From the NCBI RefSeq assembly GCF_008180865.1, contig NZ_VTEX01000002.1:992001-1056000 (forward strand): a stretch of DNA of 64,000 nt, in the 5' to 3' direction. The notes beneath the pieces are model-generated. The model saw nothing but the letters and a program-made list of their open reading frames with translations. It made no database searches and had not been told where the DNA came from. The position numbers were made by a program, and so were the translations under genes. Below are positions 4,445 to 16,492 of this stretch, one piece after another. The first letter of the stretch is position 1; every line of letters begins with the position of its first letter. The DNA is from Rossellomorea aquimaris. GTDB taxonomy: Bacteria > Bacillota > Bacilli > Bacillales > Bacillaceae_B.

Positions 4445-6386
4445 GGAAGTCATCATTCAAAGCCTTCGGAATGTTGGGTGGGTAGGGATCGTTTACTTTA
4501 TCGGACTTCTCTTTTCTTTGCCAGTTGACGTTATCGGTAAACTATCTAACGACAATCAGCCCTATCCGGTTGCCATTTATGAAAACCTGTTTAAAATGCA
4601 ATACCCGATACAAATGGGTTTGATGCTGTTCGTTCCAGTCATTCTATCTCTTTTCCTTTTCCGATATTTACATGTAAAGCAGGCTGCAGACTTCATGCAT
4701 AGCCTTCCACTGACACGCAGCAAATTATTTTTTCATTTTACCGTTACAGGATTCGTCATTCTCATCCTGCCAATTGTACTGAATACAGCGATTTTACTTT
4801 CCCTTTATTCATTTACGGATCTTCAGCAATTTATTGATGTTCAAGATATTTTCATCTGGTGCGGCATCACGATCCTAATGAACATCCTTCTGTTCACAGC
4901 CGCTACCTTTGTAGCCATGATAACAGGACTGACAGCTGTACAGGGAGCTATGACTTACATCCTGCTCTTATTACCAGCTGGAATGTTTATGCTCGTATGC
5001 TTTAGCCTGAAAAATCTTTTATACGGTTTTCCAGAGGATTATTTTTTCAATATCAAAATTGAACAATATTCCCCTGTCATCAAGGCCGTATATCTTGAGA
5101 ATAAAATCTTTGCCGGATTAGATGTGACACTGTTCATAGCTATCACTCTCCTACTCTATGTTTTATCGTATGTATTGTATAAAACGAGAAAAGTAGAAGC
5201 AGCGTCACTTGCCATTGTATTTCCTGTCCTCCGCCCCCTGTTCAAATATGGAGTCGCTTTCTGTTTCATGCTGGTCGGCGGCATGTACTTTAATGGAATC
5301 TATCAAGAGACGGGATGGACCATATTCGGCTATTTTATAGGATCATTCATTGGCTATTATCTTGCAGAAATGGTTTTACAAAAACATTGGAGAGTGTTCC
5401 GCCATTGGAAGGGCTTTGCCGGGTTTGCCGTGGCCATCTCTCTTATCGGTTTATTCATTCAGTTCGATTTATTTCAATATGAAAAGAAGATTCCTGAATT
5501 GGAAGATATAGGAAAAGTTCATGTGAGCCCAAGCTATTATTCCTTGACGGACAATCCAGAATCACTCATTGAAGAACCATTTATAAGCAAACCTAAAACA
5601 ATTGAAGCGGTTCTGAATCTTCATGAAGAAATCGTTAACAACCAAGATCAGAACAAAGCAACTCCTGAGGATAGCGAGCAAATCTTTTTCTATTACAAAA
5701 TGAAAGATGGCAGTAAGCTGGTGAGGAACTATCAAGTGAATATAGACAAATTCAAACCCCAGTATGCTTCACTTTATGAAATGAAAAATTATAAAGAAAC
5801 GACGGAGCAGATCTTCTCAGTTAATTCAAGCAAGGTAGACAAACTATCGATATATTCTGATATGGGAAATAGACAGAGTATTAGCATTGTCGATCCGGAA
5901 CAAATCAATGAAGCCATCGGGATTTTAAAAGAAGAAACCTATAATGATACGTTTGATGACCGTGACAGAGTGAACCTCTATAACGTTGAATTACTTCTTT
6001 CAGAGAATCAATGGATCCATGTCGGGGTACGTAATAACGATAAGAAATTCGAATCCTGGCTACAGGAGAATGGTTACCTGGAAGATATAAGGATGGCTGC
6101 ATCTGATGTTGAGTGGATGTACGTGATCGATCAAGAGCGTTACCGTAACCGTCTGTTCAACGTCATGGATCCAGATACCGAAGCCCTGGAGTTAAAGAAA
6201 GAAAACAAAGGAATTGAAATAGAGGATCCCACACACGTTGAAGCCATCATGGATCAACTCGTATACAACCAGATGACCAATGAATATATGGTGCTCATCA
6301 AGTATAAAACCCACGGAAATGTCGAAGTGCGAGGGTTAAAGTCTGAAGATACCCCTTCATTCCTGAAGAGTAAAACGAAAAATTGA
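4416..6386 (+). CDS. ABC-2 type membrane protein with large C-terminal domain
   Basis: A 656-residue partner of the preceding ATPase. The first 350 residues contain about nine to ten hydrophobic helices, beginning VGWVGIVYFIGLLFSLPV and ending near GFAGFAVAISLIGLFIQF. The remaining 300 residues are hydrophilic, rich in Tyr, Glu and Lys, and probably face outward as one or two soluble domains. The architecture resembles Bacillus permeases annotated with a DUF6449-type domain (from memory). ATG 4416 is chosen because GGAGG lies 9 nt upstream; an earlier in-frame ATG lacks such a site. The gene is followed within 25 nt by an ECF sigma factor. Confidence 0.75.
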   Translation: MPSKTSWINKEVIIQSLRNVGWVGIVYFIGLLFSLPVDVIGKLSNDNQPYPVAIYENLFKMQYPIQMGLMLFVPVILSLFLFRYLHVKQAADFMHSLPLTRSKLFFHFTVTGFVILILPIVLNTAILLSLYSFTDLQQFIDVQDIFIWCGITILMNILLFTAATFVAMITGLTAVQGAMTYILLLLPAGMFMLVCFSLKNLLYGFPEDYFFNIKIEQYSPVIKAVYLENKIFAGLDVTLFIAITLLLYVLSYVLYKTRKVEAASLAIVFPVLRPLFKYGVAFCFMLVGGMYFNGIYQETGWTIFGYFIGSFIGYYLAEMVLQKHWRVFRHWKGFAGFAVAISLIGLFIQFDLFQYEKKIPELEDIGKVHVSPSYYSLTDNPESLIEEPFISKPKTIEAVLNLHEEIVNNQDQNKATPEDSEQIFFYYKMKDGSKLVRNYQVNIDKFKPQYASLYEMKNYKETTEQIFSVNSSKVDKLSIYSDMGNRQSISIVDPEQINEAIGILKEETYNDTFDDRDRVNLYNVELLLSENQWIHVGVRNNDKKFESWLQENGYLEDIRMAASDVEWMYVIDQERYRNRLFNVMDPDTEALELKKENKGIEIEDPTHVEAIMDQLVYNQMTNEYMVLIKYKTHGNVEVRGLKSEDTPSFLKSKTKN

Positions 6387-14024: not shown

Positions 14025-15218
14025 CTAGGCGGATGTCTGGTGAACAAACTTTTTTTGTTTGCGTCCTTCCAGTATCGCTACAACTAAAGCAATGAGCAGG
14101 AATAAGCTTGAGATCTGGAATAAAACACCCGTCTCAACATATTGTGCAAGCACTCCGAATACTAAGCCGCTTAAGCCGATTCCAAGATCAATGGACGAGA
14201 AGAACATCCCATTGGCCACTCCCCTTCTATTGTCAGGAGTTAATGACAAAGTCCAGGATTGGAGTGTTGGAATAAGAGATCCAAATCCAACTCCAAACAA
14301 AATACCTGATACGATGATGAGGAAATCAGAATGAGCATAGGATAATACCCACATACCGATAAAGGTAATCACGATACAAAAGAGAACAAGCCCCTTAGGT
14401 CCGCGTTCATCAAACCATTTCCCGGCAATCGGTCGTGATAGGGACGCCATGATTGCATTACATAAATAGAATAAGAAGATATGCTGGATTCCACGTTCTT
14501 CCCCAAAGATGACGATAAAGGTAACGATCGACCCGTAACCAAAGGTCACCATGATCGTAATGAACGCTGGAAACCAGCTGGATTTTTCAACTAATGAACC
14601 CAGATAGGAAAACTTCAAGTCTTCCTTTTTCGTTTCTTTGACGACTTGAGGTGTACGGTAATGAACGACACCTAACAAGATAACCGCGATAACACCCAGT
14701 GCACTGGAAGTAATGATCAGGTTTGTGAAGGTCGTTACCTGGAATAAATATATCCCGAGACTTGGAGCTATAATCATTCCAATCGTAATCGACAATCCGT
14801 AATATCCCATTCCTTCACCTAAACGTGATTTCGGCACCACATCCACGGCTGCCGTCCCATTCACCGTTGTAGACCATCCCCATGCCAACCCGTGTACAAA
14901 CCTGAATAAAAGAAAGATGAATACCACACTGGACAATGGATAAATCACCGTGATCAATAATAACGAGATTCCACCTATTAATACAAGAGGTTTCCTGTCC
15001 CTGTATTCAAGCATAAACCCAATGAACGGCCTGCTTAACACTGCACCTATCGAAAATAACGTCGTCACTAATCCAATTTCCAAACCTGAAGCCCCGATCG
15101 ACTTTATATAAGGCGGAAGCGTCGGTATCAGCATTTGAAACGACATAAACACAAACAAGTTTCCTACCATCAACATAATAAAAGACCTCGTCCATAAAGG
15201 ATCCTTTACCTTATCCAT
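14025..15218 (-). CDS. MFS transporter
   Basis: A 397-residue major facilitator with about twelve hydrophobic helices. The loop between helices 2 and 3 carries the MFS motif A variant (SRPFIGFMLEYRDRKPLVLIGG), and helix 4-5 has the pattern HGLAWGWSTTVNGTAAVDVVPKSRLGEGMGYYGL, typical of drug/proton antiporter-like carriers in Bacillaceae. The second half repeats the motif (SRPIAGKWFDERGPKGLVLF). The substrate is unknown; efflux is the usual guess for this group. The start is ATG 15218, with AAAGGGGG upstream, rather than an in-frame start seven codons earlier. Monocistronic, with a terminator at 13941-13995. Confidence 0.85.
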   Translation of the reverse strand: MDKVKDPLWTRSFIMLMVGNLFVFMSFQMLIPTLPPYIKSIGASGLEIGLVTTLFSIGAVLSRPFIGFMLEYRDRKPLVLIGGISLLLITVIYPLSSVVFIFLLFRFVHGLAWGWSTTVNGTAAVDVVPKSRLGEGMGYYGLSITIGMIIAPSLGIYLFQVTTFTNLIITSSALGVIAVILLGVVHYRTPQVVKETKKEDLKFSYLGSLVEKSSWFPAFITIMVTFGYGSIVTFIVIFGEERGIQHIFLFYLCNAIMASLSRPIAGKWFDERGPKGLVLFCIVITFIGMWVLSYAHSDFLIIVSGILFGVGFGSLIPTLQSWTLSLTPDNRRGVANGMFFSSIDLGIGLSGLVFGVLAQYVETGVLFQISSLFLLIALVVAILEGRKQKKFVHQTSA

Positions 15219-15429
15219 AAGAAAACCCCCTTTCACCATCTATCAATAATCCTCCCAATACATTAAGGAGGATAATATTTCGCATTACTAAATAATAGCA
15301 CATAAAACACAATTGCGATACGATTTACAACCCGTGAAAACATGCTAGTTTTTTACAAATATTGCACAATGTAACGCGTGATTTTCTTATGATTGAATTT
15401 AAGTGAATATAGGGAAAGTAATACTGACT

Positions 15430-15574
15430 GTTTTTTTGGCTCATTCCGGGTAGAGAAGGACAGGCGATAGAGCAAATTCATTTGCTCCTAGCGCCTGTCC
15501 TTCTCTATCCGGCCTTTCAGCGTCCGCTGAAAGGCGAGTGAAACGAACGTTTCACTCGAACGAGCCAAAAAAAC
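15430..15574. repeat. 145-nt element folding as a closed three-hairpin junction
   Basis: A perfect 13-bp outer stem (15430-15442 with 15562-15574, G-T7-GGCTC) encloses three hairpins. The first is a 21-bp arm (15446-15466 with 15492-15512, one G-T wobble), topped by GAGCAAA/TTTGCTC with a TTCA loop. The second is CCTTTCAGC/GCTGAAAGG (15513-15521, 15526-15534). The third is CGAGTGAAAC/GTTTCACTCG (15535-15544, 15549-15558). Nearly every base pairs. The outer T7 and A7 tracts could make it a bidirectional terminator between the divergent MFS and pxpB genes, or it may be a mobile palindromic repeat or structured RNA. I see no gene in the rest of 15219-15772. Confidence 0.85.
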
Positions 15575-15642
15575 AAATGCAGAATAACCAGTCCCCCACA
15601 CACCATAATTCTTGGAATAACCATCTAATTCCCAACCTTTTA

Positions 15643-15670
15643 TTGAAAAGACAAAGAATTATACTATAAT
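15643..15670 (+). promoter_or_regulatory. Sigma-A promoter of the pxpBC operon
   Basis: TTGAAA (15643-15648), a 16-nt spacer, then a perfect TATAAT (15665-15670), about 100 nt upstream of the TTG start of pxpB. Confidence 0.65.
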
Positions 15671-15772
15671 AACAACATGGCTTAAATTTCTGAATAATCT
15701 TATTTGCACGCCTACTCATACATAATTATTTTTTATTTTTTATAATCATACAAGACGAATGGAGGTAGTTCT

Positions 15773-16492
15773 TTGAATTATACGTTACGACCATTGGGCG
15801 ATCATGCCGTCGTTATACAATTAGGAAATTCAATTCAGCAAGAAACACACGAAAAGGTTAAAGCAGTCACCACCTTTTTTGAAACCCGGACAATCGACTG
15901 GCTTGTTGAATACATACCGGCATTTACAACCGTCACACTTTATTACGACCCAATCAGAATCATAGAATCTTACAAACCTTTTCAGAGTACATTACCGTAC
16001 AAAATTGTCTGTTCAGAAATTGAACATATACTTTCCCAACTTACAACCTTAGAACAATCAGATTCCCGAATCGTCGACATTCCCGTCTGCTACGGTGGAG
16101 AATTCGGACCAGACCTTGAAGATGTCGCGAACCACAATCACATGTCTATCGAAGAAGTCATCGCGAAACATTCCAATGGTGACTACCTCGTATACATGAT
16201 TGGATTCGCCCCGGGGTTCCCTTATATCGGAGGCATGTCCCCGGATATTGCGACACCGAGAAGGGAATCACCCCGCCTCAAGATCCCGGCTGGCTCAGTT
16301 GGAATTGCCGGAGAACAAACAGGCGTATACCCGATTGAAACACCAGGAGGGTGGCAGCTGATTGGTCGAACCCCCTTAAAATTATTCAAACCAAATAATG
16401 ACGACTCACCAAGCTTACTAAAAGCAGGTGATCGAATTCGTTTCACTCCCATTTCATTTGAAGAATATAAAGCATTGGAGGAGGAACAATGA
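15773..16492 (+). CDS. pxpB: 5-oxoprolinase subunit PxpB (KipI-like)
   Basis: A 239-residue member of the KipI/PxpB family. Its C-terminal half has the family block YMIGFAPGFPYIGGM, then PRRESPRLKIPAGSVGIAGEQTGVYPIETPGGWQLIGRTP, the cyclophilin-like domain. With PxpC and PxpA it forms the cytosolic 5-oxoprolinase that hydrolyses 5-oxo-L-proline to glutamate using ATP; in B. subtilis KipI was also described as an inhibitor of the sporulation kinase KinA. TTG start chosen because GGAGGT lies 7 nt upstream. It overlaps pxpC by 4 nt. The third subunit, pxpA, is absent from this cluster. Confidence 0.93.
   Translation: MNYTLRPLGDHAVVIQLGNSIQQETHEKVKAVTTFFETRTIDWLVEYIPAFTTVTLYYDPIRIIESYKPFQSTLPYKIVCSEIEHILSQLTTLEQSDSRIVDIPVCYGGEFGPDLEDVANHNHMSIEEVIAKHSNGDYLVYMIGFAPGFPYIGGMSPDIATPRRESPRLKIPAGSVGIAGEQTGVYPIETPGGWQLIGRTPLKLFKPNNDDSPSLLKAGDRIRFTPISFEEYKALEEEQ

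What the first reader, a model, noticed from the sequence alone, without database searches (positions are those of the whole stretch)
15430..15574. 145-nt element folding into a closed cloverleaf-like junction
A 13-bp perfect outer stem encloses three hairpins of 21, 9 and 10 bp with almost no unpaired bases, between divergent genes. Such complete pairing with a U/A-tract outer stem could be a bidirectional terminator, a structured RNA, or a MITE-like palindromic element.
Basis: seen in the sequence. Interest (0 to 1): 0.65.

Follow-up and report, generated by a model that had tools for sequence, protein, structure and literature searches.

The report
Self-mending palindrome from a transposon family
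The 145-base stretch is one settled copy of a repeat family of bacilli, related to a small transposon, that folds into a cloverleaf whose arms stay matching and whose loops flip over evolutionary time, which points to copying errors in the DNA rather than to a working RNA.

Summary
The fold is real: 64 pairs in 145 nt, z about -17.6. It is not unique. Relatives occur in 29 of 36 genomes of the window's genus (Rossellomorea, inferred) and in 65 of 397 genomes sampled from the order; I collected 90 copies in the genus.

In Alkalihalobacillus macyae and other bacilli the same core sits inside a roughly 195-bp MITE with GGCTATGTTA-like ends and 8-bp AT-rich target duplications. Those ends resemble IS1595-family insertion sequences, one of them in the window's own genome. 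Rossellomorea copies lack the ends (0 of 90 have both) but 87 of 90 sit at sites shared by at least two genomes: they are settled.

Covariation is overwhelming (734 two-sided against 31 one-sided changed cells), yet lacks an RNA signature: G.T and A.C mismatches are equal overall (107 against 100), hairpin loops are often reverse-complemented between species, and elements have flipped in place at four sites. Template switching at DNA palindromes predicts this.

Terminator and RNA-gene readings are not supported here. Hairpins 2 and 3 and the outer stem are somewhat more conserved than the flanks; a DNA-level function is possible but unproven.

The parts
15430..15446 (.). outer stem, 5' arm (13 perfect pairs, an A.C mismatch, 3 more pairs)
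15447..15511 (.). hairpin 1, long; sequence varies between copies while the arms stay complementary
15512..15535 (.). hairpin 2, TTTCAGC/GCTGAAA-type stem found across genera
15536..15557 (.). hairpin 3, GTGAAAC/GTTTCAC-type stem found in most but not all genera read (not in L287-L290)
15558..15574 (.). outer stem, 3' arm
15643..15670 (+). promoter-like site (TTGAAA-16-TATAAT) of the KipI/PxpB-like gene, pointing away from the element; context, not part of it
   Evidence: 3 promoter-like sites found, 2.2 expected; this one matches 11 of 12
14025..15239 (-). MFS transporter gene, left neighbour (context)
   Evidence: PF07690
15773..16492 (+). KipI/PxpB-like carboxyltransferase-domain gene, right neighbour (context)
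   Evidence: PF02682

Best explanation
The stretch is a settled, immobile copy of a non-autonomous transposon family of bacilli. SHOWN: elsewhere the same cloverleaf core lies inside a MITE (full unit 195 bp) with terminal inverted repeats and 8-bp target duplications, and IS1595-family insertion sequences have similar ends; copies in the window's genus lack those ends and mostly sit at shared sites. INFERRED: the genus copies descend from such MITEs, lost the ends, and were once moved by the transposase of such an IS. The core is a nest of DNA palindromes. INFERRED from sequence signatures: when a strand folds back during replication, polymerase switches template between the arms and copies one arm onto the other. 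This keeps arms complementary while their sequence drifts, and sometimes inverts a loop or the whole element. So the perfect cloverleaf and its covariation need no RNA function. Hairpins 2 and 3 and the outer stem change less than hairpin 1 and the flanks, so some added constraint at DNA level is possible, but what it would serve is unknown; at the kipI site the element is dispensable, since many species of the genus have none or only remains.
For: MITE form: of 44 two-ended elements (ends with at most 1 mismatch each, 30-260 bp, from loci and the A. macyae loci), 26 have a perfect 8-bp duplication and 7 one mismatch; offset controls reach this in 0 of 132, a one-base-shift control in 2 of 44 (both with one mismatch). 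IS1595 link: of 18 loci with a PF12762 match (examined), four have ends of this kind and a perfect 8-bp duplication: L146, L148 (a match with one stop inside; ends GGCACTGTTA/GGCTCTGTTA), L199, and the window's own genome (L252:1329-2914). Settled copies: 0 of 90 Rossellomorea elements have both ends; 87 of 90 lie at sites shared by at least two genomes. DNA-level evolution: 116 unique elements, 6382 Watson-Crick, 107 G.T, 100 A.C, 63 other, P 0.68 for G.T against A.C; 12 tRNAs through the same code give 28 G.T and 8 A.C. 11 of 19 variable loop groups contain a reverse-complement pair, null mean 2.7, maximum 7 of 2000. Flips in place between the outer-stem arms at site pairs 3/7, 4/17, 11/14, 2/18. 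734 cells changed on both sides, 31 on one; 41 of 43 pairs covary. Template switching with these outcomes is described in PMC8604942 (abstract and one results section read) and PMC8794818 (passages read).
Against: No Rossellomorea copy keeps both ends, and no duplication was sought or seen there, so descent from the MITE is inferred; the reverse (a MITE captured an older core) is open. Elements were collected with a model made from the consensus, which favours well-kept copies, so the conservation of hairpins 2 and 3 is partly ascertainment. Loop and pair counts and the loop null are not corrected for phylogeny. Pairwise, reverse-complement loops are common only in hairpin 1 (41 against 41 same and 33 other); in hairpin 2 they are 6 against 30 same and 43 other, in hairpin 3 6 against 56 same and 29 other. 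Template switching was not observed, only products it predicts. The outer-stem flips (about 130 bp) are much longer than the spacers of the yeast cases; another recombination route could make them. Per-site mismatch counts are uneven (site 0: 25 G.T, 15 A.C; site 3: 22, 5; site 2: 7, 13; site 4: 10, 17). A. macyae has no PF12762 match.
Confidence: 0.66

Rival explanations
1. Domesticated DNA-structure element: the cloverleaf or cruciform is bound by a host protein that reads hairpins 2 and 3 and the outer stem and acts in either orientation (for example as insulator or nucleoid landmark).
For: Mean pairwise identity at six sites: outer stem .71-1.0, hairpin 2 .87-.94, hairpin 3 .83-.94, against .54-.86 for the adjacent 100-bp flanks and .57-.84 for hairpin 1. 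Copies without ends at recurring sites in other genera: upstream of sufC (g62; 8 genomes with one match each, gene context read in 2), upstream of nuoA (g86 and g77, read in 4 loci), ileS-lspA (2 loci) and rnpA-dnaA (1 locus) in g39 (gene names recalled from the translations, no family search run). Flips are tolerated, which suits an orientation-free role.
Against: At the kipI site 13 of 30 read loci show no element and 4 have lost parts; 7 of 36 genus genomes have no match. Margins are small at places: hairpins 2 and 3 .87 against the right flank .86 at site 0; hairpin 3 .86 against hairpin 1 .84 at site 4 and .83 against .82 at site 5; coding sequence 300-600 bp away is as conserved or more at sites 0, 4. 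Ascertainment inflates conservation. No binding protein known.
Confidence: 0.21
2. Structured RNA (sRNA or leader) selected for its fold.
For: Very stable fold and extreme covariation; at site 3 G.T exceeds A.C 22 to 5.
Against: G.T equals A.C overall; at site 0, where tig and clpX both imply transcription of the element's minus strand, the wobble usable by that RNA is the rarer (15 against 25). Loop and whole-element inversion. No Rfam gathering match to the element; the relaxed hits on the element are mostly animal miRNA hairpins, all below their cut-offs. Here both neighbours are transcribed away from it.
Confidence: 0.08
3. Bidirectional transcription terminator.
Against: 0 terminator-like sites in the region; the T-run precedes and the A-run follows the outer stem; divergent genes here; settled copies occur in divergent, convergent and co-directional gaps.
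Confidence: 0.05

Closest known systems
MITEs mobilised by IS1595-family insertion sequences (class recalled; ISs identified here by PF12762)
   Same: Short, no coding capacity, in several genera terminal inverted repeats and 8-bp duplications with ends like those of IS1595-type ISs
   Different: The window copy and the 90 collected Rossellomorea copies lack a complete pair of ends; the interior is a four-way nested palindrome kept after mobility
Template-switch (quasipalindrome) mutation products, PMC8604942 and PMC8794818
   Same: Arm homogenisation, multi-base compensatory changes, loop or spacer inversion
   Different: Here on a dispersed bacterial repeat over many genera, with in-place inversion of the whole 130-bp unit
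bcr1-bcr18 repeats of the Bacillus cereus group (PMC6542083, passages read)
   Same: Short dispersed repeats (100-400 bp) of bacilli, some with mobile features
   Different: bcr mobility is linked there to a TTTAT motif; the present family has GGCTATGTTA-like ends; sequences were not compared
Minute inversions at chloroplast hairpins (Kelchner and Wendel 1996, recalled; only a search listing of other papers seen)
   Same: Loop inversion at hairpins
   Different: Different genome, no repeat family

Membership tests
IS1595-type MITE (the family) | terminal inverted repeats like those of an IS of the family | tested here: met
   Met by mobile relatives (26 of 42 named-genome cores have both ends) and by four ISs
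IS1595-type MITE (the family) | 8-bp target duplication | tested here: met
   33 of 44 two-ended relatives with at most 1 mismatch
IS1595-type MITE (the window copy itself) | complete element with ends and duplication | tested here: not met
   no pair of ends (0 of 90 genus copies); filed as a settled relative of the MITE, not as a complete MITE
IS1595-type MITE (the window copy itself) | no transposase of its own | tested here: met
   no listed ORF of 60 aa or more overlaps 15430-15574
IS1595-type MITE (the family) | moved in trans by an IS1595 transposase | not testable with these tools
   needs an assay
Structured RNA gene | wobble pairs favoured on the transcribed strand | tested here: not met
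   107 G.T against 100 A.C overall; uneven per site, site 3 in favour of G.T
Structured RNA gene | discrete transcript | not testable with these tools
   no expression data
Known Rfam family | match at gathering score | tested here: not met
   10 loci holding the element: only BsrC elsewhere on L093; window 15000-16000: all relaxed hits below their cut-offs
Intrinsic terminator | GC stem followed by a T-run | tested here: not met
   0 found, 0.7 expected by chance
bcr repeats | TTTAT motif / sequence match | not tested
   reference sequences not held
REP/REPIN | GTAG or CGTC tag and RAYT partner | not tested
   not examined

The most novel reading that the evidence does not exclude
A four-way DNA palindrome, carried between sites by a transposon and then kept for genus-level time at fixed sites without mobility, is a domesticated, orientation-free DNA-structure signal read by an unknown host protein; its sequence is free to drift and flip because only the shape plus the hairpin 2 and 3 motifs matter.
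Probability: 0.2. Interest if true: 0.75.

Novelty: new variant of a known kind. Interest (0 to 1): 0.52.

Why it matters
Covariation is usually taken as proof of RNA structure. This family has near-perfect covariation with signs that it arises at DNA level, so it warns against calling such elements ncRNAs. It also offers many natural replicates for measuring template-switch inversion in bacteria, and asks whether bacilli have adopted a transposon core as a DNA-structure element.

Tried and rejected
Rfam with a relaxed cut-off gave hits on the element that are mostly animal miRNA hairpins, all below gathering scores. ISL3 (PF01610) was tested as the mobilising family because of its 8-bp AT-rich duplications (recalled): no match in A. 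macyae, and the seven ISL3 loci of other genomes showed no matching pair of ends with a duplication. No IS1595 transposase was found in A. macyae itself. Of the nine PF12762 loci, two more had perfect duplications but GGCTCTTTTC ends (L195, L196), one had related ends with a one-mismatch duplication (L200) and two gave none (L147, L197); eight others gave no such pair. The pattern was absent from viral contigs, the window element from plasmids, the A. macyae unit from phages. Hits in a Bacteroidaceae and a Lachnospiraceae MAG (L038, L047) lack hairpin 2 and the outer stem and were dropped. Alignment A2 mixed both strands and was not used; A3 replaced it. Left out of the 90 genus copies: L015, L021, L023, L025, L033, L034, L193, and whatever the capped list did not show. 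Paper searches for IS1595 MITEs in Bacillus, Rossellomorea repeats, bcr repeats, MITEs and palindromes in Bacillaceae, cloverleaf MITEs and the end sequence gave no listing that describes this family; these are listings of an open library, not full readings.

Full report
OBSERVATION. The stretch 15430-15574 folds as described: 64 pairs in 145 nt on the + strand, -98.4 kcal/mol, z -17.6 against shuffles, and z -15.2 on the other strand. It lies between an MFS gene and a KipI/PxpB-like gene that point away from each other. A promoter-like site of the latter is at 15643-15670, and no terminator-like site is found in 15200-15800.

FAMILY. A search of the window's own genome found two further full copies, after an S8 peptidase gene and between tig and clpX (gene names from the translations), and a model later found a degenerate fourth (L250). 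Of 101 genomes, own included, 27 matched by sequence. A pattern scan of named genomes gave 79 stretches, many in Alkalihalobacillus macyae and others in Rossellomorea, Robertmurraya, Peribacillus and further bacilli. That the window's genus is Rossellomorea is inferred: contigs of its unnamed relatives have the same lengths as Rossellomorea records (e.g. 68,384 and 479,888 bases). A covariance model from 30 copies finds the element in 29 of 36 genus genomes at E up to 0.001 and in 65 of 397 genomes drawn from the order, 17 of 135 genera, at E up to 1e-6. The printed lists of both calls were capped. I collected 90 genus copies and fetched 60 stretches from the order list.

MOBILE FORM. In A. 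macyae and others the core is nested in a unit ending in GGCTATGTTA ... TAACATAGCC. Of 44 such two-ended elements, 26 have a perfect 8-bp duplication, 7 one mismatch, 6 two and 5 three or more; offset controls have at most one mismatch in 0 of 132 and a one-base shift in 2 of 44. Size variants from 35 to 195 bp carry duplications. This suggests that the cloverleaf is not needed for movement, though deletion after insertion would leave the same picture. IS1595-family ISs (PF12762) in Peribacillus loiseleuriae (L146), B. methanolicus (L148, one stop inside the match), genome G010 (L199) and the window's own genome (L252) have ends of this kind and perfect 8-bp duplications. The own-genome IS is G000:C13:399328-400913; its left end AGCTATGTTAATGTTCAATGTTGATATTTG resembles the MITE end GGCTATGTTAATGAACAGTGTTGATTTTTG. 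Of the other PF12762 loci examined, two had perfect duplications with GGCTCTTTTC ends (L195, L196), one a one-mismatch duplication (L200), and the rest none found. Only 5 of 36 genus genomes have a PF12762 match, and A. macyae has none.

SETTLED FORM. None of the 90 Rossellomorea elements has both ends; 7 have one by a loose criterion, against 20 with at least one in shuffled flanks. They fall into 19 flank clusters, six of them with 7 to 20 members; joining mirrored clusters leaves 15 sites, and 87 of 90 copies lie at sites with at least two genomes. At the kipI site, all 36 genomes have a homologue of the gene. Of the 30 loci read (560 bases upstream scanned), 13 have the element (one, G016, with a rearranged hairpin 1), 2 have lost hairpin 1 (G012, G006), 2 keep scraps (G005, G004) and 13 show none. 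Other genera have copies without a pair of ends, some at recurring sites (g62, g86, g77, g39, part of g21). Descent from the mobile form is inferred: P. hwajinpoensis L107 has a decayed left end at the right distance, and some Rossellomorea copies keep GTTGATTTTTGG or AATCAAC beside the core (read by eye). Capture of an old core by a MITE is not excluded.

RNA OR DNA. On an alignment of 79 matches from 80 loci that I chose (L303 fell below the threshold), 96.6% of cells pair, 41 of 43 pairs show two-sided change, and 734 cells are changed on both sides against 31 on one side; shuffles and slid structures come nowhere near. The alignment was fitted to the model, which favours the structure. Normally this would be read as RNA. 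Three tests say otherwise. First, if an RNA were selected, G.T should exceed A.C on its strand. In 116 unique elements there are 107 G.T and 100 A.C (some genus elements may enter twice with different borders), while 12 tRNAs through the same code give 28 and 8. Per site the counts differ (site 0: 25/15, site 2: 7/13, site 3: 22/5, site 4: 10/17). At site 0, where both neighbours imply transcription of the element's minus strand, the wobble that RNA could use is the rarer (15). Second, loops with identical arms are often reverse complements between orthologs: 11 of 19 variable loop groups (15 more are invariant), against a null mean of 2.7 and a maximum of 7 in 2000 (null not corrected for phylogeny). 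Pairwise and non-independent: hairpin 1 same 41, reverse-complement 41, other 33; hairpin 2 30, 6, 43; hairpin 3 56, 6, 29. Third, at four sites the whole element is inverted between its outer-stem arms relative to the flanking sequence.

MECHANISM. Template switching between inverted-repeat arms homogenises arms and inverts spacers in yeast (PMC8604942, abstract and one results section) and gives multi-base compensatory changes and loop inversions in rRNA genes, a Firmicutes example among them (PMC8794818, passages). The same process explains arms that drift together, flipped loops and flipped elements here. That it acts here is inferred; its expected products are shown.

FUNCTION. Among orthologs at six sites the mean identities are: outer stem .71-1.0, hairpin 2 .87-.94, hairpin 3 .83-.94, hairpin 1 .57-.84, adjacent 100-bp flanks .54-.86, shuffled left flanks .50-.53. 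Hairpins 2 and 3 exceed hairpin 1 and both flanks at all six sites, but narrowly in places (.87 against .86 at site 0; hairpin 3 against hairpin 1 .86/.84 at site 4 and .83/.82 at site 5). Since hairpin 1 is equally palindromic it is an internal control, and the difference suggests added constraint; but the search model selects for it, and short segments align differently from long ones. Sites occur in divergent, convergent and co-directional gaps, and loss is tolerated. I therefore rate a relic maintained by its own mutational behaviour as most likely, and a domesticated DNA-structure signal as the main rival.

KNOWN OR NEW. No Rfam family matches the element at gathering score (relaxed search of the window region), and six paper searches gave no listing that describes the family. 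Prokaryotic MITEs with stable folds are well known (PMC10969869, passages). The new part is the nested, flipping, self-mending core and its persistence without mobility.

CHANGES AT CHECKING. The odds of the best explanation were lowered from 0.68 to 0.66 and two rivals raised by 0.01 each, because the size variants prove less about movement than first written, and because the loop-inversion excess is strong pairwise only in hairpin 1.

Noticed in passing
G000:C13:399328-400913 (L252:1329-2914): An IS1595-family insertion sequence in the window's own genome with a perfect 8-bp duplication and ends like the MITE's: a candidate mobilising partner.
   Followed up: partly
L051:2216-2450 and 4598-4832, L074:2461-2695, L060:7535-7709: A second MITE with a different interior (235 bp, a 175-bp variant) and GGCTCTGTTAAA ends in Bacillus sp. 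CECT 9360, with 8-bp duplications (one with a mismatch).
   Followed up: no
L030 about 1415-1510: What looks like a partial tandem duplication of one end of the element with its flank in genome G053.
   Followed up: no
L021 about 1500-1565 (G012) and L025 about 1490-1575 (G006): Orthologs of the window copy that lost hairpin 1 but kept hairpins 2 and 3 and much of the outer stem.
   Followed up: partly
L093:2297-2383: BsrC sRNA match (Rfam, 80 bits) in A. macyae, not connected with the element.
   Followed up: no
G000:C13:2210-2343 (L004) and orthologs: In the tig-clpX gap hairpin 1 resembles a bidirectional terminator in some species; its arms differ wholesale between species yet stay complementary.
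   Followed up: partly
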